Of a stretch of DNA of 64,000 nt, positions 18,446-26,240 are shown piece after piece. The notes below the pieces were generated by a model. The model did not search any database. It was not told where the DNA came from and saw nothing but the letters and a program-made list of their open reading frames with translations. The translations under genes were made by a program, and so were the position numbers. Every line of letters begins with the position of its first letter. Position 1 is the stretch's first letter. This DNA comes from Ferrimonas marina (GTDB taxonomy: Bacteria > Pseudomonadota > Gammaproteobacteria > Enterobacterales > Shewanellaceae): assembly GCF_900129905.1 (NCBI RefSeq), contig NZ_FQXG01000006.1:206580-270579 (forward strand), given 5' to 3'.

Positions 18446-19495
18446 ATGAAACAGGCTAAGCATTGGCACTGGCTACTCGCCCTGGCGTTTGCGCTGGGTA
18501 TGGGCAGTGCGTTGGCCGAAGAGGCGCCGGATCAGGACGCCGCCCTGGTGCAATCCGTAATGGCGGCCCAGGCCGCTGAAGTGGAAGGCACAGGGGGTGG
18601 CACTACCGAGGGACTCAATCCACTTTGGTTGGATATCAAGAACGGCGAGGTGGGTCGCACCACCTCCGCCGGGGAGTTCCATGGCAGCCTGATCAACACC
18701 TACGATCTGGGGCTGTTGACGGCCCGTTCCGACTGGATCGCGCCGGCGCTGTCACTGGCGCTGTTTGGCATGATCCTGGTGTTCGCGCTGTTCGTGATGG
18801 TCAATGGTGCCGCCAAGTTGGAGCATGGCTACTCCGGCGTCGAGGTACTGCGGTGGAAAAAGATCGACATCTGGATCCACTGGCTGATGGCGATCCCTTG
18901 TCTGCTGTTGATCGTCACCGGGCTGGCATTGCTGGCGGGGCGTTTCGTCTTTGGCTCCTTCCTGGGGCAGGAAGGCGTAGGCGCCCTGGCGGGCATCGCC
19001 AAACCGGTACACGACTACATGGCGATACCGTTCTCCATCTTTGCGGTGCTCGCCATGGTGCGCTGGATGGCCAACAACATCCCGGCCAGCTACGACCTGA
19101 AGTGGTTCATGGTGGTGGGGGGATACCTCAACTTCGGGCCCTTCAAGGGCAAGCACCCGGATGCGGGGTTCTCCAACGCCGGTGAGAAGCTGTGGTTCTG
19201 GAGCTTTGTGATCTTTGGGTTGGCGGTGATCGGCTCCGGTGCCGTCATGCTGTTCCCGGAGTACATCAACCCCAGCCGCACTGCCAGCATGACCGCCATC
19301 GTCATCCATGGCGCCTCAGCCATCGTGCTGACCGGCTTTACCGTGGTGCATATCTTTATGGCCACCGTACTGTCCGAGGGGGGCTTCCCGGCGATGACCT
19401 CCGGCTACGTGGACGAGAACTGGGCCAAGCAGCACCACAATGTCTGGTACGACGACATCAAGGCCGACGGTACCCTTCAGTACAAAGAGGGGTGA
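18446..19495 (+). CDS. fdhC: Formate dehydrogenase cytochrome b subunit FdhC1
   Basis: A 349-residue membrane subunit with an N-terminal Sec signal (ending GSALAEE), a periplasmic linker and four to five membrane helices. The helix histidines in WIHWLMAIPCLLLI, KPVHDYMAIPF and VIHGASAIVLTGFTVVHIF are candidate heme b ligands. It passes electrons from formate oxidation to quinones. The C-terminal tail VWYDDIKADGTLQYKEG is the segment duplicated downstream. Good ribosome site GGGAGGAGCT precedes the ATG. Last gene of fdh operon 1. Confidence 0.93.
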   Translation: MKQAKHWHWLLALAFALGMGSALAEEAPDQDAALVQSVMAAQAAEVEGTGGGTTEGLNPLWLDIKNGEVGRTTSAGEFHGSLINTYDLGLLTARSDWIAPALSLALFGMILVFALFVMVNGAAKLEHGYSGVEVLRWKKIDIWIHWLMAIPCLLLIVTGLALLAGRFVFGSFLGQEGVGALAGIAKPVHDYMAIPFSIFAVLAMVRWMANNIPASYDLKWFMVVGGYLNFGPFKGKHPDAGFSNAGEKLWFWSFVIFGLAVIGSGAVMLFPEYINPSRTASMTAIVIHGASAIVLTGFTVVHIFMATVLSEGGFPAMTSGYVDENWAKQHHNVWYDDIKADGTLQYKEG

Positions 19496-19749
19496 CTTCG
19501 GGGGCGGGTGTTGCTGTAGCAGCACCCGCTATGATGTTCCGGTACGACGACATCAAGGCCGACGGTACCCTGCAGTACAAGGAAGGCCGACGGAGTGAAG
19601 CTAGATTAGCTGGTGTTTTCCGCAGCACCAGCAATCCCTTCCGGTACGACGACATCAAGGCCGACGGTACCCTTCAGTACAAAGAGGGGTGACTTCGGGG
19701 GCGGGTGTTGCTCAAGCAGCACCCGCTACGATGTTCAGAAACGCCGACA
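19446..19749 (+). repeat. Tandem copies of the fdhC1 3' end separated by hairpins
   Basis: The last 50 bases of fdhC1 (19446-19495, starting GGTACGACGACATCAAGG) recur at 19541-19590 and 19643-19692, and a decayed start of a fourth copy is at about 19732-19753. Offsets are 95, 102 and 95 bases. Copies 1 and 3 are identical over their full 50 bases; copy 2 differs at five third-codon positions plus TGA to CGA. Between copies are hairpins: GCGGGTGTTGCT/AGCAGCACCCGC (19504-19529 and 19701-19726) and a weaker one at 19610-19633. The extragenic copies 2 and 3 are preceded by TTCC, unlike the gene. Confidence 0.9.
19531..19692 (+). other. Small open frame encoding two FdhC tail repeats
   Basis: From ATG-ATG at 19531 a 53-residue frame runs to the stop of copy 3 and encodes FRYDDIKADGTLQYKEG twice, because copy 2 has CGA where fdhC1 has its TGA stop. 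There is no clear ribosome-binding site, and a stem-loop lies immediately upstream, so translation is doubtful. It is reported because the reading frame and synonymous changes are preserved. Confidence 0.3.
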
Positions 19750-19751
19750 TC

Positions 19752-19777
19752 AAAGCCCCGCATCGCGGGGCTTTTTC
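19752..19777 (+). terminator. Rho-independent terminator of fdh operon 1
   Basis: AAAGCCCCG pairs with CGGGGCTTT (plus an inner C-G pair) and is followed by TTC. The left arm overlaps the decayed fourth copy of the fdhC1 tail. Confidence 0.85.
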
Positions 19778-20331
19778 TTGGTTCTTCGCAAATTTGCGGG
19801 GTTAACTGCCAATAGTGCGACTAATCACTATTTACTAGGTAACTTTGTCGCGTTGGCGACAGCAACCAAAGGGGCGTTCCGCCCCCTTGGAACCCCCTTG
19901 CCTCCAATCGGTGCTTAATCCTCGTATTGGCGGCATCGACTGGCGGCAAAGACCAGAGTCGGCCTCCATGCCTCCGCTGGTCATTCGGGCCATCCTGGCC
20001 CTCAGCCTTGTCGATGACGCCTCTACTCGGGCACCTCAAAGTCGGCGCAAGAGCCGTTGGTTCATCAAGCATGGGAAGGAAGTTTGATCAAACTGAGATG
20101 TGCCGATTTCACACAGTTTTAGAGCTTCAATGGGCACTTGTCCTCGGAGATCCGCGATAGGGCTTTTTCTTGGCCACGTATCCTCCCCTCGGGGCACCCA
20201 CCGATTTACCCCTGAAAGCCTGAACCCGGTTTGCCAACCTGGCGCTTTGAGCGACGGCCAATCCGGTCTCACTCAAGCCGGAGGAGATCGCTGGAAACCA
20301 TAAGTGAAGGCGTTTGAACTCAACTACTTGG

Positions 20332-20347
20332 CGTGATGCGTGTCACA
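20332..20347. promoter_or_regulatory. CRP-like site upstream of fdh operon 2
   Basis: CGTGATGCGTGTCACA matches the TGTGA-N6-TCACA consensus at 9 of 10 defined positions. It is about 320 bases upstream of fdhX2. Confidence 0.5.
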
Positions 20348-20451
20348 AAATGGCAATTTGAATATGTGCGCTACGACGGCCAAAAACCGAGCCAGATTAC
20401 CGTGTTTCAACCCGCTCCCATCCAACTGATAACTGTTCTCACACTGGCGTG

Positions 20452-20475
20452 TCCCAAATTGTCCACTTTGGACAA
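20452..20475. promoter_or_regulatory. GGACAA/TTGTCC-type site upstream of fdh operon 2
   Basis: TCCCAAATTGTCC (20452-20464) matches the 13-base palindrome of operon 1 at 10 positions, and TTGTCC-N5-GGACAA (20459-20475) forms a second perfect dyad. No well-spaced GG-N10-GC promoter was found after it, unlike at the other three sites. Confidence 0.45.
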
Positions 20476-20665
20476 AAAGACGAAGAAATTAGGCCTGCTG
20501 GTGCTTTTTTGAGCGCCTTCAAAGGTTGTGCTGGATCAAGTTATTTTGCACCTCCCTTCGTCATTCTTGCCTCTGCGTGTGAGCAATGACGCGAAAGGAT
20601 CAAACCTGTGACCCAAGCCTTGGGTGGCGGGTTGGGCAGTGAGAAGTAACCCAGTAAGGATGGTT

Positions 20666-20860
20666 ATGAATAAGAAACCCGAGATGGCTCGTCGCCAATT
20701 CCTCAAGACGGTCGCCGCTGGCTCCGCAGTAGGTGTTGCAGCCGCAGCCGTAAGCCCTGCCGCTCTGGCAGACACTCCGAAGGTCGAAGCTAAAGATGGC
20801 ATCGGCTACCGCGAAACCGACCACATCCGCAACTACTACGCCGTTGCGCGTGGTCAGTAA
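20666..20860 (+). CDS. Formate dehydrogenase region Tat target protein FdhX2
   Basis: A 64-residue paralog of FdhX1 with a clear twin-arginine signal MARRQFLKTVAAGSAVG ending near PAALA, and the conserved tail GIGYRETDHIRNYYAVARGQ. AAGGA lies 8 bases before the ATG. First gene of fdh operon 2, 14 bases before fdhA2. Function as for FdhX1: unknown small partner of the exported enzyme. Confidence 0.85.
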   Translation: MNKKPEMARRQFLKTVAAGSAVGVAAAAVSPAALADTPKVEAKDGIGYRETDHIRNYYAVARGQ

Positions 20861-20874
20861 GGGGGAGAGCAACA

Positions 20875-23739
20875 ATGAAACTGACTCGAACTCAAGCGGT
20901 TGCTGAGAATGCCAAGGCCCTGGGCCTGAACCGTCGCCAGTTTTTGAAGAACGCCGGTGTGACCACCGGTGGCATCGCCGCTGCCTCCATGCTGGGTGCC
21001 GGCATGATGCGCAAGGCGGAAGCGTCCGTCGCCGCCAGCGCCGGTGGCAAGACCGAGACCGTGAAGACCATCTGTTCTCACTGTTCTGTTGGTTGTGGTG
21101 TCTACGCCGAGGTTGAGAACGGTGTATGGGTTGGCCAGGAGCCGGCTTTCGATCACCCCATCAGCCGCGGTGGCCACTGTGCCAAGGGCGCCTCCCTGCG
21201 TTACCACACCCACAGCGACAAGCGGGTGAAATACCCGATGAAGCTGGAAGGTGGTAAGTGGAAGAAGCTGTCCTGGGATCAGGCGATCAACGAGATCGGC
21301 GACAAGATGCTGGCCGTTCGCGAAGAGTCCGGTCCGGATTCCATCTACTTCATGGGCAGCGCCAAGTTCTCCAACGAACAGTGCTACCTGTACCGTAAGA
21401 TGGCAGCCGTCTGGGGCACCAACAACATCGACCACTCTGCCCGGATCTGTCACTCCACCACCGTAGCCGGTGTGGCCAACACCTGGGGTTACGGTGCGCA
21501 GACCAACTCCTACAACGACATGCACAACTGTAAGTCGATGCTGTTCATCGGTTCTAACGCCGCTGAAGCGCACCCGGTTGCCATGTCCCACGTGCTCACT
21601 GGTAAAGAGCGCGGCGCCAAGATGATCGTGGTGGACCCCCGCTTCACCCGTACTGCAGCCCACGCTGACGAGTACGTGCATATCCGCCCCGGTACTGACA
21701 TCCCCTTCATCTACGGCCTGCTCTGGCACATCTTTGAGAACGGTTGGGAAGACAAAGACTTCATCAAGCGTCGTGTGTACGGTATGGACGCCATCCGTGA
21801 AGAGGTGAAGCGCTGGACTCCGGCAGAAGTGGAAGACGTGACTTCCGTTTCTGGTGAGCAGATGTACCGCGTGGCCAAGACCCTGGCCGAGCACCGTCCG
21901 GGCACCATCGTATGGTGTATGGGTGGTACCCAGCACACCGTCGGTAACGCCAACACCCGTGCCTACTCCATCCTGCAGCTGGCGCTGGGCAACATGGGCG
22001 TATCCGGTGGCGGTGCCAACATCTTCCGTGGCCACGATAACGTACAGGGCGCGACCGACTTCGGTCTGCTGTTCGACAACCTGCCGGGCTACTACGGTCT
22101 GTCCGAAGGTGCCTGGCGTCACTGGTCCAACGTTTGGGATCTGGAGTTTGACTGGGTTAAGGCCCGCTTCGACCAGGGTACCTACCTGGGCAAGGTGCCG
22201 ATGAACACCCCCGGGATCCCCTGTTCTCGCTGGCACGATGGCGTGCTGGAAGACAAGAACAAGATCGGTCAGAAAGACAACATCCGTCTGGCATTCTTCT
22301 GGGGTCAGTCCGTTAACACCGAAACCCGTGGCCGTGAGGTGCGTGAAGCACTGAACAAGATGGACACCGTGGTGGTGGTTGACCCGTACCCGACCATGGC
22401 CGGTGTCATGCCGCAGCGTCAGGACGGTGTTTACCTGCTGCCGGCGGCGACCCAGTTCGAGACCTACGGTTCTCTGTCTGCGTCCAACCGTTCTCTGCAG
22501 TGGCGTACCCAAGTGACCGAGCCGATGTTCGAGTCCCTGCCGGACCACGTGATCATGTACAAGATCGCTAAGAAGGTGGGCATCGCTGACCAGCTGTTCA
22601 AGAACATCAAGGTGAACGGCGACGAGCCGCTGATCGAAGACATCACCCGCGAATTCAACAAGGGTATGTGGACCATCGGTTACACCGGTCAGTCTCCGGA
22701 GCGTCTGAAGATGCACCAGGAAAACTGGCACACCTTCTCCTGGGAAGACCTGTCCGCACCGGGTGGCCCGGCTCGCGGCGAAACCTACGGTCTGCCGTGG
22801 CCGTGCTGGGGCACCGCGGAGCTGAAGCACCCGGGTACCCACATCCTGTACGACACCTCCAAGCACGTAATGGAAGGTGGCGGTAACTTCCGTGCCCGCT
22901 TCGGTGTGGAGCACGATGGGGTCAACATCCTGGCTGAAGATGCCGGTTCCAAAGGCAATGAGCTGGGTGACGGTCACCCGGAATTCACCGCCGACATGCT
23001 CAAGCAACTGGGCTGGTGGGACGAGCTGACCGCGGAAGAGAAGCAGCACGCCGAAGGCAAGAACTGGAAGACCGACATCTCCGGTGGTATCCAGCGTGTG
23101 GCCATGGCCCACGGTTGTATCCCGTTCGGTAACGCCAAGGCCCGTTGTAAGGTCTGGACCTTCCCGGATGAGATCCCGCTGCACCGTGAGCCGCTGTACA
23201 CCCCGCGTCGTGACCTGATCACCAAGTACCCGACCCACGATGACATGCAGGTACATCGTCTGCCGACCCTGTTCAAGTCCATCCAGGATAAGGTAATCAG
23301 CGACAACCTCGATAAGAAGTTCCCGCTGGTGGTGACCTCCGGTCGTCTGGTGGAGTACGAGGGTGGTGGTGAAGAGACCCGTTCCAACCCGTGGCTGGCG
23401 GAGCTGCAGCAGGAGATGTTCGTTGAGATCCATCCTGCCGATGCAGCCGACCGTGGTATCCGCGACGGTGACGAGGTCAAGCTGAAGTCGCCGGAAGGTG
23501 CCGTTATCGGCATGAAGGCGATGGTGACCCCGCGTGTGACCGAGGGCGAGTGCTTTATGCCTTACCACTTTGCTGGTGTGTTCGAAGGCGAAGAGCTGCA
23601 GTACCCCGAGTCCGGTGGTGTCAGCACCAAGCCCTACGTGGTGGGCGAATCCGCCAACACCGCCATGACCTACGGTTATGACCCGGTGACCCAGATGCAG
23701 GAAACCAAGTGTTCCCTGTGTGAAATCGAGAAAGCGTAA
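20875..23739 (+). CDS. fdhA: Formate dehydrogenase catalytic subunit FdhA2
   Basis: A 954-residue periplasmic bis-MGD enzyme, very similar to FdhA1. Twin arginines R20-R21, 4Fe-4S cysteines C67, C70, C74 and C102, metal ligand C192 in ARICHSTTVAG followed by H193. Substitutions relative to FdhA1 are scattered and conservative. Codon choice differs strongly: GGT, CGT, GTT and TCT codons are frequent, as in highly expressed genes, whereas fdhA1 prefers GGC, CGG and GTG. This suggests fdh operon 2 supplies the bulk enzyme. The long minus-strand open frame opposite this gene is a codon-bias shadow. Confidence 0.95.
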   Translation: MKLTRTQAVAENAKALGLNRRQFLKNAGVTTGGIAAASMLGAGMMRKAEASVAASAGGKTETVKTICSHCSVGCGVYAEVENGVWVGQEPAFDHPISRGGHCAKGASLRYHTHSDKRVKYPMKLEGGKWKKLSWDQAINEIGDKMLAVREESGPDSIYFMGSAKFSNEQCYLYRKMAAVWGTNNIDHSARICHSTTVAGVANTWGYGAQTNSYNDMHNCKSMLFIGSNAAEAHPVAMSHVLTGKERGAKMIVVDPRFTRTAAHADEYVHIRPGTDIPFIYGLLWHIFENGWEDKDFIKRRVYGMDAIREEVKRWTPAEVEDVTSVSGEQMYRVAKTLAEHRPGTIVWCMGGTQHTVGNANTRAYSILQLALGNMGVSGGGANIFRGHDNVQGATDFGLLFDNLPGYYGLSEGAWRHWSNVWDLEFDWVKARFDQGTYLGKVPMNTPGIPCSRWHDGVLEDKNKIGQKDNIRLAFFWGQSVNTETRGREVREALNKMDTVVVVDPYPTMAGVMPQRQDGVYLLPAATQFETYGSLSASNRSLQWRTQVTEPMFESLPDHVIMYKIAKKVGIADQLFKNIKVNGDEPLIEDITREFNKGMWTIGYTGQSPERLKMHQENWHTFSWEDLSAPGGPARGETYGLPWPCWGTAELKHPGTHILYDTSKHVMEGGGNFRARFGVEHDGVNILAEDAGSKGNELGDGHPEFTADMLKQLGWWDELTAEEKQHAEGKNWKTDISGGIQRVAMAHGCIPFGNAKARCKVWTFPDEIPLHREPLYTPRRDLITKYPTHDDMQVHRLPTLFKSIQDKVISDNLDKKFPLVVTSGRLVEYEGGGEETRSNPWLAELQQEMFVEIHPADAADRGIRDGDEVKLKSPEGAVIGMKAMVTPRVTEGECFMPYHFAGVFEGEELQYPESGGVSTKPYVVGESANTAMTYGYDPVTQMQETKCSLCEIEKA

Positions 23740-23753
23740 GGAGAAGCTGACTC

Positions 23754-24329
23754 ATGGCTCAAATGAAGTTTATGTGTGACACCAAGCGCTGCATCGAGTG
23801 TAACGGCTGTGTCACCGCCTGTAAGAACGAGAACGACTCCGCGCTTGAGTGGGGCATCCAGCGTCGCCGCGTGGTGACGGTCAACGACGGTGTCGTTGGC
23901 AAGGAAGCCTCCATCTCCGTGGCCTGCATGCACTGCGACGACGCCCCTTGTATGAAGGTGTGCCCGGTCAACGTGTTCAGCCAGACCGAAGACGGTATCG
24001 TCCTGCACGACAAGGACCGCTGCATCGGCTGTGGCTACTGCCTGTACGCCTGTCCGTTTGGTGCCCCGCAGTTCCCGAAAAAATCGGCGTTCGGCGGCAA
24101 GGGCAAGATGGACAAGTGCACCTTCTGTGCCGGTGGCCCGAACACCGAGCCGGGCTCCGCCGAGGAGAAGGTGAAGTACGGTGCCAACCGTATCGCCGAA
24201 GGCAAGCTGCCGATGTGTGCCGAGCTGTGTTCCACCAAGGCCCTGCTGGCCGGTGATGCGGGCGTCGTGTCCGACATCTACCGCGAGCGTGTGGTCACCC
24301 GTGGTCACAAAGACGGTGCCTGGGGCTAA
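23754..24329 (+). CDS. fdhB: Formate dehydrogenase iron-sulfur subunit FdhB2
   Basis: A 191-residue paralog of FdhB1 with the same four 4Fe-4S motifs: CDTKRCIECNGCVTACK, CMHCDDAPCMKVCPVNVF, CIGCGYCLYACPFGAPQFP and the CTFCAGG/CAELCSTKALL pair. FdhB1 has an additional cysteine (PADC) where FdhB2 has PVNV. No signal peptide of its own. A ribosome site AAGGAGAAG precedes the ATG. It follows fdhA2 by 14 bases and is separated from fdhC2 by 59 bases containing a strong hairpin, in contrast to the 9-base gap in operon 1. Confidence 0.94.
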   Translation: MAQMKFMCDTKRCIECNGCVTACKNENDSALEWGIQRRRVVTVNDGVVGKEASISVACMHCDDAPCMKVCPVNVFSQTEDGIVLHDKDRCIGCGYCLYACPFGAPQFPKKSAFGGKGKMDKCTFCAGGPNTEPGSAEEKVKYGANRIAEGKLPMCAELCSTKALLAGDAGVVSDIYRERVVTRGHKDGAWG

Positions 24330-24342
24330 GGCCTGAGTAACG

Positions 24343-24370
24343 AAGGGGCGATCCTCGGATCGCCCCTTTC
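24343..24370 (+). terminator. Strong hairpin between fdhB2 and fdhC2, attenuator or processing site
   Basis: AAGGGGCGATCC pairs perfectly with GGATCGCCCCTT over a 2-base loop and is followed by TC then GTG. The short T-tail suggests partial termination or RNA protection that would lower fdhC2 relative to fdhXAB2. Confidence 0.65.
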
Positions 24371-24388
24371 GTGCCGCAAGGAGTAACT

Positions 24389-25372
24389 ATGTTCAAAAAC
24401 CTGATAAAGCCCCTGTTGGCGTTGGTGCTGATGTTGCCGGCCCTGGCTCTGGCGGCGGACCCTGGTACCGTGGCCGAACAGGCCGGGAACCCGTCCGACG
24501 TGCTGTGGCAGGCGATCCAGCAAGGGGAAGTGGGTCGCACCACCTCCTCGGTGGATCACCACGGTCAGCTGATCAACACCGTTGATGAGCGCCTGTTGCC
24601 GGCGCGCAGCGACTACCTGGCGCCGGCCCTGGCGCTGGCGCTGTTTGGCATGATCGGGGTGTTCATCCTGTTTATCCTGGTGAATGGCCCGTCCAAACTG
24701 CACGACGGCTTCTCCGGTAAGATGGTGTACCGCTGGTCCAAGGCCGACGTGGCGATCCACTGGCTGGGGGCGATCCCCTGCCTGCTGCTGATCCTCACCG
24801 GTCTGGTGCTGTTGGCCGGCCGTCTGATCATCGAACCGCTGATGGGTCCGGAAGCCCTGGCCAGCTTGGGCGCCATTGCCAAGCCGGTGCACGACTACAT
24901 GGCGATCCCCTTCCTGTTGGGTTGGTTGCTGATGAGCGTGAAGTGGGCCAAGAACCAGATCCCCGCCAAGTACGACATCGCCTGGTTCATGGTGGTGGGT
25001 GGCTACATCAACTTCGGTCCGTTCAAGGGCAAGCACCCGGATGCGGGCTTTGCCAACGCCGGTGAGAAGGTGTGGTTCTGGTGCTTCGTGCTGTTCGGTG
25101 CGGTGATCGCCGTCTCCGGTGTGATCCTGCTGTTCCCCGAGTACGTCAACCCGTCCCGTAGCCTGAGCCTGCTGGCTCTGATTGCCCACGGTGCGGCGGC
25201 CATCATCATCACCGCGTTCTCCGTGGTGCACATCTTCATGGCCACCGTGCTGTCTGAAGGTGGCATGGAGTGCATGGTGTCCGGTTACTGCGACGAGAAC
25301 TGGGCGATCCAGCACCACAATGTGTGGTACGACGAGATCAAGGCCGACGGTACTCTGAAGTACAAGGAATAA
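24389..25372 (+). CDS. fdhC: Formate dehydrogenase cytochrome b subunit FdhC2
   Basis: A 327-residue membrane subunit paralogous to FdhC1: Sec signal ending LALAAD, then four to five membrane helices with candidate heme histidines in AIHWLGAIPCLLLILTG, KPVHDYMAIPF and IAHGAAAIIITAFSVVHIF. The start at 24389 has AAGGAG at ideal spacing; an ATG-like extension upstream is not favoured. The C-terminal NVWYDEIKADGTLKYKE is the segment repeated twice downstream. The N-terminal linker is about 20 residues shorter than in FdhC1. Confidence 0.93.
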   Translation: MFKNLIKPLLALVLMLPALALAADPGTVAEQAGNPSDVLWQAIQQGEVGRTTSSVDHHGQLINTVDERLLPARSDYLAPALALALFGMIGVFILFILVNGPSKLHDGFSGKMVYRWSKADVAIHWLGAIPCLLLILTGLVLLAGRLIIEPLMGPEALASLGAIAKPVHDYMAIPFLLGWLLMSVKWAKNQIPAKYDIAWFMVVGGYINFGPFKGKHPDAGFANAGEKVWFWCFVLFGAVIAVSGVILLFPEYVNPSRSLSLLALIAHGAAAIIITAFSVVHIFMATVLSEGGMECMVSGYCDENWAIQHHNVWYDEIKADGTLKYKE

Positions 25373-25552
25373 GCCTATGGGCGGTGCTGGGGTCCAGCAC
25401 CAGCTCAAGTGTTCCGGTACGACGAGATCAAGGCCGACGGCACTTTGAAGTACAAGGAATAAGCTTGTGGCTGGTGCTGGAGTCCAGCACCAGCTCAAGT
25501 GTTCCGGTACGACGAGATCAAGGCCGACGGCACTCTGAAGTACAAGGAATAA
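25326..25552 (+). repeat. Three tandem copies of the fdhC2 3' end with hairpin spacers
   Basis: The final 47 bases of fdhC2 (25326-25372) recur at 25416-25462 and 25506-25552, an exact 90-base period. Relative to the gene the copies differ only at third positions or at a synonymous leucine codon (GGT to GGC; CTG to TTG in copy 2), and each ends with the same TAA. Spacers contain GGTGCTGG/CCAGCACC and GCTGGTGCTGG/CCAGCACCAGC hairpins. Both extragenic copies are preceded by AGTGTTCC. The 90-base period keeps all copies in the fdhC2 reading frame. Confidence 0.93.
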
Positions 25553-25585
25553 GGGGCCATCCAGCATTAGCTTGATGATCTCTGT

Positions 25586-25599
25586 TTGATCCGTATCAA
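25586..25599. promoter_or_regulatory. Perfect FNR/EtrA box
   Basis: TTGATCCGTATCAA is an exact match to TTGAT-N4-ATCAA. It sits after the fdhC2 repeats and 122 bases before the lipoprotein gene at 25722, with TAAAAT at 25637 as a possible -10 element. It overlaps the left edge of a terminator. Confidence 0.65.
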
Positions 25600-25628
25600 T
25601 GGCGCCCCCAGTGGGCGCCATTATTGTT
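25598..25628 (+). terminator. Rho-independent terminator of fdh operon 2
   Basis: AATGGCGCCC pairs with GGGCGCCATT over a 5-base loop, followed by ATTGTT. Confidence 0.8.
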
Positions 25629-25721
25629 AAAGAGAGTAAAATATAGGCACTTGCGGAACTTTGTCCCGACCTTTAGGGACGAACTCTATGCCGCCTGTCG
25701 AGACACGGAAGAGGAAGCCCT

Positions 25722-26240
25722 ATGACCCCATGGATGGCGCTGCTGCTGGTTGCCCTGCTCAGCGGCTGCAGCAGCTATGTCAGAACCACCGCTACCCCCA
25801 GGGTGGATTGTCACACCGAACTGGCCAGCATCGAGCAGCTTTATCACCGCGCCTTGACCCAGTTCGAGGCCAATCCCAACCTGCATGACTTCCCCAAGTA
25901 TTTTCAGCACTTCGATCATGTACCCAGTGACGATGGCGTGCTGCGCTACCGGGTCTCGCATGATCAGCCCTATCACCTGACGGATCCGCAGGCCCACTGG
26001 GGCAGCAAGCTGTACCGCTTGATGCGTCATACCCTCAGGCTGGAGGGTAAGGCCCCTTACCACCTCAGGCAAAGTATGGTGTTCCAGTGGCGCCAGGGCA
26101 GCTATCTTGGCCACCAGGTTGAAGCACCCAAGTGCTTCCTTGGCAACCAGGCGCTGACCAGCTGCGATGGGGCAGTGACGGCAGAGTTGGCGACCGGGGT
26201 GACGGCGGAATTGCCCAGCCATTCAGGAGCCCAGTTATGA
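25722..26240 (+). CDS. Lipoprotein of unknown function, first of a paralogous pair
   Basis: A 172-residue protein with a lipoprotein signal: hydrophobic MALLLVALLSGCSS gives a lipobox LLSGC with C17 (approximate). The body holds IEQLYHRALTQFEANPNLHDFPKYFQHFDHVP and VFQWRQGSYLGHQVE, both echoed in the next gene, so the two are tandem paralogs. No known family is recognised. The ATG lies 10 bases after AGAGGAAG. Position after fdh operon 2 and an FNR box suggest anaerobic expression. Confidence 0.75.
   Translation: MTPWMALLLVALLSGCSSYVRTTATPRVDCHTELASIEQLYHRALTQFEANPNLHDFPKYFQHFDHVPSDDGVLRYRVSHDQPYHLTDPQAHWGSKLYRLMRHTLRLEGKAPYHLRQSMVFQWRQGSYLGHQVEAPKCFLGNQALTSCDGAVTAELATGVTAELPSHSGAQL

What the first reader, a model, noticed from the sequence alone, without database searches (positions are those of the whole stretch)
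19446..19749. fdhC1 3' end repeated downstream with hairpin spacers
Seen: the last 50 bases of fdhC1 occur again at 19541 and 19643 and in decayed form near 19732, at offsets 95, 102 and 95. Copy 3 is identical to the gene; copy 2 has five third-position changes and TGA to CGA. Hairpins with 9-12 base stems sit between copies. I know of no described element that places copies of a gene's own C-terminal codons after its stop codon. Possible roles: templates for gene conversion, RNA stability modules, or an alternative tail.
Basis: partly seen in the sequence, partly recalled or inferred. Interest (0 to 1): 0.85.

Follow-up and report, generated by a model that had tools for sequence, protein, structure and literature searches.

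The report
Stacked copies of a gene's ending
In some Ferrimonas and Shewanella bacteria, the last few dozen bases of the formate dehydrogenase gene fdhC are repeated after the gene with hairpins in between, most likely leftovers of recombination that stacks one gene ending in front of another; no use to the cell has been shown.

Summary
All three fdhC genes of this genome carry tail copies, fdhC2 (24371-25372) included. Arrays follow 12 of 40 fdhC ends read in the window's genus (6 of 14 genomes) and at least 9 loci in 8 of 123 genomes of a second genus (Shewanella by name matches). Layout: tail-(linker-tail)n-3' region. In the window's genus 10 of 12 linkers match none of 117 array-less ends; in F. 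sediminum fdhC2 the region after the last copy matches an array-less ortholog's end. In one Shewanella group three arrays stack one kind of gene end in front of another, across a junction shared with a fourth. F. sediminum fdhC1 and fdhC2 share a linker but not tails. Copy-gene differences fall 75 of 94 at third codon positions. I read this as gene-end stacking by recombination, then spread between fdhC alleles and paralogs (tails as homology arms) and concerted evolution. Against: 6 of 21 arrays fit plain tandem duplication, and tails give mixed signals. Origin and function are unproven. Closest known: the E. coli tyrT/tyrV RtT repeats, checked here to have the same layout. New variant of a known kind.

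The parts
18446..19495 (+). fdhC1, formate dehydrogenase gamma (cytochrome b) subunit; its last about 50 bases are the repeated tail
   Evidence: ORF; PF01292 80.5 bits; TIGR01583 163 bits, cut-off 115.85
19446..19495 (+). gene tail (copy 1), in frame, ends TGA
19503..19530 (+). linker hairpin 1 (12 pairs); right arm CAGCACC resembles the gene's own QHH codons
   Evidence: z -4.50
19541..19590 (+). tail copy 2; four synonymous changes, stop TGA to CGA
19604..19635 (+). linker hairpin 2
   Evidence: z -2.61
19643..19692 (+). tail copy 3, identical to the gene tail
19700..19727 (+). linker hairpin 3, near copy of hairpin 1
   Evidence: 118 nt at 92%; z -5.70
19733..19757 (+). decayed fourth tail copy, runs into the terminator
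19752..19774 (+). terminator-like hairpin after the array (1 found, 0.5 expected in shuffles)
24371..25372 (+). fdhC2, second formate dehydrogenase gamma subunit
   Evidence: PF01292 72.1 bits; TIGR01583 170.9 bits
25326..25372 (+). fdhC2 gene tail (copy 1), ends TAA
25378..25407 (+). fdhC2 linker hairpin 1
   Evidence: z -3.30
25416..25462 (+). fdhC2 tail copy 2, TAA kept, two synonymous codon changes
25470..25494 (+). fdhC2 linker hairpin 2, 12-base perfect arms
   Evidence: z -5.22
25506..25552 (+). fdhC2 tail copy 3, TAA kept, one synonymous change

Best explanation
These are stacked gene ends made and spread by recombination, not a coded device. An fdhC 3' end (the last 47-75 bases plus a linker with a hairpin) was placed in front of the resident gene's own end, leaving tail-linker-tail-old 3' region. 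The copies on both sides of the linker are homology arms, so the cassette can pass into another fdhC allele or paralog by ordinary homologous recombination and lands at an fdhC end. Exchange between tails changes copy number and keeps each tail like its own gene. Shown: the layout; an extra linker in front of the old 3' region in F. sediminum fdhC2; one junction shared by four Shewanella arrays, three of which have a second kind of end behind it; a linker shared by two paralogs of one genome. Inferred: that recombination between alleles did it; how the first junction arose (one-sided, homology-facilitated illegitimate recombination, or a hairpin-primed template switch); that no selected function is needed.
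For: (1) Array-less relatives go from stop to a terminator-like hairpin (by eye). F. sediminum fdhC2 is followed, after its last copy, by sequence that matches the array-less F. kyonanensis fdhC2 end (score 71; 34 was the largest of 400 shuffled queries), so about 91 bases are extra. 57 of 66 pairs of g1 linkers score above the null maximum of 20. (3) In Shewanella G153, G112 and G164 the first linker is like the ends of G166 (38-115) and, weakly, G033 (31-53), while the region after the last copy is like the array-less G157/G115 ends (61-84); across the two sets no score exceeds 25. All four arrays (with G166) share the junction before the copy (40-69, null maximum 23 of 300). In G153 the last tail matches G157's gene tail (86) better than the gene tail matches any array-less tail (69). 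(4) F. sediminum fdhC1 and fdhC2 share a linker (60, null maximum 20 of 300) with different tails. (5) Copy-gene differences: 75 of 94 at third positions, 35 copies in 21 arrays. (6) 23 of 28 genomes with an fdhC match have two or more, which offers partners.
Against: In 6 of 21 arrays the linker resembles the region after the last copy (41-109), which plain tandem duplication explains as well; for window fdhC1 this partly reflects an uncounted fourth copy. In the second genus 7 of 9 linkers themselves match an array-less gene end above 34 (two of them only at 35), so there the linker is not foreign. In G112 the tails point the other way from G153: its gene tail matches G157 (69) better than its last tail matches anything (54). 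Only 5 of 12 g1 arrays have an after-array region that matches an array-less end above 34. No donor was found for the g1 linkers. The left edge of the copy falls at or near the same codons in both genera although spacing runs from 89 to 377 bases; one inherited junction explains this inside a group, not between groups. Persistence of such repeats over species is easier to understand with some selection. No recombination was observed.
Confidence: 0.48

Rival explanations
1. Plain tandem duplication of the gene end by replication slippage or a hairpin-primed template switch, later decaying.
For: Hairpins stand at the left edge of the copies, in genus g1 with one arm an inverted copy of the gene's own CAGCACC. 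In 6 of 21 arrays linker and after-array region are alike. Other gene-edge duplications exist: a CusA/CzcA-like 5' end, a tRNA-His 3' half with terminator, a tRNA-Asp, a PrpF-like 5' end. In non-overlapping ORFs 9 of 1,037 gene starts score 34 or more against their upstream region (one of these ORFs lies in the fdhC1 array).
Against: In 15 of 21 arrays linker and after-array region differ (17 or less). G153, G112 and G164 combine two kinds of gene end. In three 400-kb stretches 10 of 2,879 ORF tails (100 codons or more, overlapping ORFs included) have a downstream copy at score 60 or more: 7 are fdhC, 3 lie inside repeat regions. Two of the three stretches were chosen because they hold arrays. 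At score 34 among 1,037 non-overlapping ORFs it is 8, of which 5 are fdhC.
Confidence: 0.24
2. A selected RNA device: repeated 3' UTR hairpins protect or regulate the fdh message, or tail plus hairpin is a processed small RNA kept in several copies.
For: 10 of 15 folded g1 linkers have z <= -2.3 (15 of 19 linkers were folded). At one stem position pairs differ together: G-C in window hairpins 1 and 3, T-A in hairpin 2 and fdhC2 hairpin 2, but mismatched in fdhC2 hairpin 1 (by eye). The scans found no terminator-like site between copies in either window array, so they may be transcribed; the scan also found none after the fdhC2 array. Arrays persist in several species.
Against: No clear extra synonymous constraint in the tail: ratio 0.81 against 0.91 elsewhere, last window rank 17 of 93 (all); 0.83 against 0.87, rank 60 of 111 (g1). 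In F. kyonanensis fdhC3 the copies lie behind a terminator-like hairpin with a T run (by eye). 28 of 40 g1 ends do without. 5 of 15 linkers fold no better than z -1.43. No promoter-like site in 19300-19950. No Rfam family reaches its gathering score in 19200-25800.
Confidence: 0.18
3. An unrecognised site-specific mobile element that targets fdhC 3' ends and restores the tail, as genomic islands do at tRNA genes.
For: The block hairpin-TTCCGG-tail recurs with the same edges behind three fdhC paralogs and in several species.
Against: Spacings of 89-377 bases leave no room for a recombinase gene. No reverse transcriptase (PF00078) in the genome. Tail edges differ between genera. Two Y1_Tnp matches exist in the genome but nothing links them to fdhC.
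Confidence: 0.08
4. Assembly or sequencing artefact.
For: None found.
Against: Arrays with diverged copies in 14 genomes of two genera, two of them single-contig genomes.
Confidence: 0.01

Closest known systems
E. coli tyrT/tyrV terminal repeats (RtT, Rfam RF00391)
   Same: Gene tail-(linker-tail)n-different 3' region. In L267 the last 19 bases of tyrV recur three times at 178-base spacing; RtT matches lie between tyrT and tyrV and three times after tyrV.
   Different: The gene there is a tRNA with a 19-base tail. Here it is a protein gene with a 47-75-base tail, related arrays at several paralogs and species, and no RtT match in window 19200-25800.
Homology-facilitated illegitimate recombination
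   Same: A homologous crossover at one end and an illegitimate join at the other could leave a new gene end in front of the old one. PMC3240628: only the start of its abstract was seen (listing).
   Different: There described for integration of linear DNA in laboratory experiments, not as arrays kept at one gene; not tested here.
REP/BIME palindromes
   Same: Short hairpins after genes; one linker (F. kyonanensis fdhC3) has GCCGGAT...CCTTCCGG ends (resemblance recalled).
   Different: The hairpin pattern has 9 places in the genome, 3 at fdhC, against 1 for the reversed control; the pattern with TTCCGG has 13 places, 4 at fdhC, against 8 for the control. None of the 6 other hairpin places is followed by TTCCGG within 40 bases.
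Genomic islands at tRNA 3' ends
   Same: The insertion supplies a new gene end and displaces the old one (recalled).
   Different: No integrase and no cargo; spacing at most 377 bases.

Membership tests
tyrT/RtT terminal repeats | copies of the gene's own 3' end after it, separated by a linker, last copy followed by other sequence | tested here: met
   window; different region after the last copy in 15 of 21 arrays; E. coli
tyrT/RtT terminal repeats | RtT RNA sequence and structure (RF00391) | tested here: not met
   no RtT match at E <= 1 in window 19200-25800; 4 matches in E. coli L267
tyrT/RtT terminal repeats | host gene is a tRNA | tested here: not met
   host gene is fdhC
REP/BIME | dispersed in many intergenic regions of the genome | tested here: not met
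   hairpin pattern at 9 places, 3 of them fdhC; none of the other 6 has the TTCCGG end; whether those 6 are intergenic was not worked out
Diversity-generating retroelement | reverse transcriptase in the genome | tested here: not met
   PF00078: 0 of 1 own genome; control rings in 3 of 14
Site-specific integrative element | recombinase gene between the repeated ends | tested here: not met
   spacings of 89-377 bases
Homology-facilitated illegitimate recombination product | donor gene end joined by a non-homologous or microhomologous junction in front of the old end | tested here: inconclusive
   two kinds of gene end in series with a shared junction in Shewanella; no donor for g1 linkers
Repeated small RNA array | each unit makes a defined transcript | not testable with these tools
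   no expression data

The most novel reading that the evidence does not exclude
Tail-linker-tail is a gene-specific mobile cassette with no enzyme of its own: a linker flanked by two copies of its target gene's last codons homes into other fdhC alleles, paralogs and related species through the cell's ordinary homologous recombination, and persists because transfer outruns loss. The same route may act at other multi-copy genes, tRNA genes included, and account for tyrT-type repeats.
Probability: 0.25. Interest if true: 0.7.

Novelty: new variant of a known kind. Interest (0 to 1): 0.5.

Why it matters
If right, a gene's ending can be stacked, swapped and passed on separately from the gene, in a repeatable place, and these genera give a natural series (array-less, one kind of end, mixed ends) in which gain, loss and exchange can be followed. 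It would also give tyrT-type tRNA repeats (long known, by recall) a protein-gene counterpart with before-and-after states. If selected instead, it would be a new kind of repeated 3' UTR.

Tried and rejected
Rejected or led nowhere: chance repeat (length, identity, recurrence); assembly error; reverse-transcribed insertion (no PF00078 in the genome); dispersed REP family; a hidden RNA signal in the tail by synonymous constraint (the second His codon, CAC, was nearly fixed, which one column cannot carry); Rfam match; reading the arrays as coding (copies lie behind stops). A resemblance of the hairpin arm to the recombination signal Chi was considered from memory and dropped (7 of 8 bases, not searched). 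Nine paper searches ran; two returned nothing, and in the others at most 20 of up to 1,579 papers were listed. No listed title or abstract opening described fdhC tail arrays or stacked protein-gene ends. No paper was opened. The tyrT literature is recalled; its layout was checked on the E. coli record.

Dropped rows and limits: of 42 genus-g1 fdhC-like loci read, L079 (frame runs past the usual end) and L099 (paralog without this tail) were left out, giving 40; L092 (second genus, end unreadable) and L266 (odd end) were also left out of the end comparison. The lower-identity matches after G003:C1, G036 and G055 included, were not fetched for this. The second-genus count rests on a tail pattern with up to 2 mismatches (listing cut off) or 1, so it is a lower bound. 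One search found arrays at 6 of 65 named loci, all genes already counted. Of 29 repeat clusters, 7 are fdhC, 2 look like runs of N, and 8 of the other 20 were read. The codon-position count uses local alignments, which trim decayed ends.

Full report
What was checked. The tail of fdhC1 is repeated as described. Copy 3 equals the gene over 48 bases, copy 2 has four synonymous changes and a lost stop, and the three linkers fold well. The gene is a formate dehydrogenase gamma subunit, last of an fdhA-B-C set that is followed by a second one. The second fdhC has its own array, three copies at 90-base spacing with all stops kept, and so has the third fdhC of the genome.

How far it reaches. I read the ends of fdhC genes in relatives. 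In the window's genus 12 of 40 readable fdhC ends carry arrays, in 6 of 14 genomes: G000, G005, G007, G008, G011, G012. A tail-pattern screen of 123 genomes of a second genus found 8 with arrays: G029 (two loci), G079, G112, G120, G144, G153, G164, G166. This genus is Shewanella by the same kind of match, G144 being S. corallii. Spacing between tails runs from 89 to 377 bases, with 1 to 3 copies found beyond the gene. Many fdhC genes have none, so the array is not needed for fdhC.

Is fdhC special? In three 400-kb stretches (G000, G007, G029), 10 of 2,879 ORF tails had a downstream copy at score 60 or more; 7 were fdhC and 3 lay inside repeat regions. At score 34 among 1,037 non-overlapping ORFs it was 8, of which 5 fdhC; two fdhC genes of G000 were hidden there by antisense ORFs. 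fdhC genes of this type with arrays in those stretches: 3 of 3, 2 of 3 and 2 of 2. G007 and G029 were picked because they hold arrays, so these numbers compare fdhC with other genes there and are not a rate. Duplicated gene edges do occur elsewhere: a 5' end of a CusA/CzcA-like gene, a tRNA-His 3' half with its terminator, a tRNA-Asp, and a PrpF-like 5' end (names by eye), and 9 of 1,037 gene starts score 34 or more.

Anatomy. The arrays read tail-(linker-tail)n-3' region. A plain tandem duplication should repeat the gene's own downstream sequence after the last copy. In 15 of 21 arrays linker and after-array region are unrelated (17 or less), in 6 they are alike (window fdhC1 is one of the 6 partly because its decayed fourth copy was not counted). 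Array-less relatives run from stop to a terminator-like hairpin (by eye). In F. sediminum fdhC2 the after-array region matches the array-less F. kyonanensis fdhC2 (71; 34 was the largest of 400 shuffled queries), so about 91 bases were added. The after-array region beats that maximum in 5 of 12 g1 and 8 of 9 second-genus arrays. The linker itself beats it in 2 of 12 g1 arrays (those two begin with the gene's own terminator) and in 7 of 9 second-genus arrays (two at only 35), so in the second genus linkers look like fdhC ends themselves. The g1 linkers resemble one another in 57 of 66 pairs (above the null maximum of 20): hairpin GGTGCTG-CAGCACC or a variant, then a spacer ending TTCCGG or nearly so, then the tail. 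The right arm and spacer resemble the gene's own QHHNVW codons with small insertions, so the copy probably starts about 75 bases before the stop and the left arm is an inverted copy of its start. In the second genus the copy starts near the same HH codons, in most cases behind a terminator-like hairpin.

Evidence for exchange between alleles. Two kinds of fdhC end exist in one Shewanella group: X (array-less G033, both ends of G166) and Y (array-less G157 and G115). G153, G112 and G164 have an X-like linker first and a Y end after the last copy: scores within X 31-195, within Y 38-206, across at most 25. The X link of G153 and G112 to array-less G033 is weak (31). All four arrays share the junction before the copy (40-69, null maximum 23), so one cassette seems to have passed between alleles with different resident ends. 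The tails are less tidy: in G153 the last tail fits G157 best (86 against 69 for the gene tail), in G112 it is the gene tail that fits G157 (69 against 54), which crossovers inside the tail would allow but which does not support the simple picture. In F. sediminum, fdhC1 and fdhC2 share a linker (60, null maximum 20) but keep their own tails. Copy-to-gene differences are at third positions in 75 of 94 cases, 66 synonymous against 25 non-synonymous codons over 35 copies. Local alignment trims decayed ends and the copies share history, so this is not an independent count. It fits tails that were recently real gene ends or are kept alike by exchange.

Mechanism. Shown: layout, extra linker in front of the old region (F. 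sediminum fdhC2), shared junction with mixed ends, shared linker between paralogs. Inferred: a one-sided recombination or template switch made the first tail-linker-tail; its two tails then serve as homology arms that carry the linker into other fdhC copies; exchange changes copy number and keeps tails alike. No reverse transcriptase is in the genome, and the spacings leave no room for a recombinase.

Function. Nothing requires one. Linker hairpins recur (10 of 15 folded with z <= -2.3) and the scans found no terminator between copies in either window array, so a message-stability role is open. Against it: no clear synonymous constraint in the tail, arrays behind a terminator-like hairpin in F. 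kyonanensis fdhC3, and 28 of 40 g1 ends without an array.

Known things. The E. coli tyrT/tyrV locus has the same layout: the last 19 bases of tyrV three times at 178-base spacing, with an RtT match in each linker. The window arrays are not RtT, so this works like that case without being a member. Nine paper searches (listings and abstract openings only, lists capped) did not show stacked protein-gene ends described.

Noticed in passing
L127 9025-9234 (G000:C16:109025-109234): The 5' end of a CusA/CzcA-like gene is repeated in front of it (86-base spacing, two extra copies) with a hairpin near the copies' inner edge: a mirror image of the fdhC case.
   Followed up: partly
L164 15650-15879 (G007:C1:55650-55879): The 3' half of a tRNA-His-like gene and its terminator are duplicated 146 bases downstream.
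   Followed up: partly
L199 18954-19169 (G029:C1:4196721-4196936): A second, damaged tRNA-Asp-like copy with a short insertion in the anticodon region, 154 bases from the intact one.
   Followed up: partly
L182 3384-3620 (G029:C1:3841151-3841387): The first codons of a PrpF-like gene recur 194 bases upstream, separated by what looks like an inserted intergenic element.
   Followed up: no
L144, L145, L156, L157 after the fdhC stop; also L126 5885-5984: CCTAGGAACTAG-type short repeats next to fdhC ends in Shewanella and a long run of a seven-base CTAGCAC repeat in the window's contig; origin unexplained.
   Followed up: no
L203 and L240: A record titled Marinobacter nauticus DP3N21-5 has the contig length of G006, which groups in the window's genus (Ferrimonas); the label is probably wrong.
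   Followed up: no
L079 (G002:C60:79783-80658) and L092 (G018:C64:16615-17616): fdhC-like matches with one in-frame TAA each: possible pseudogenes.
   Followed up: no
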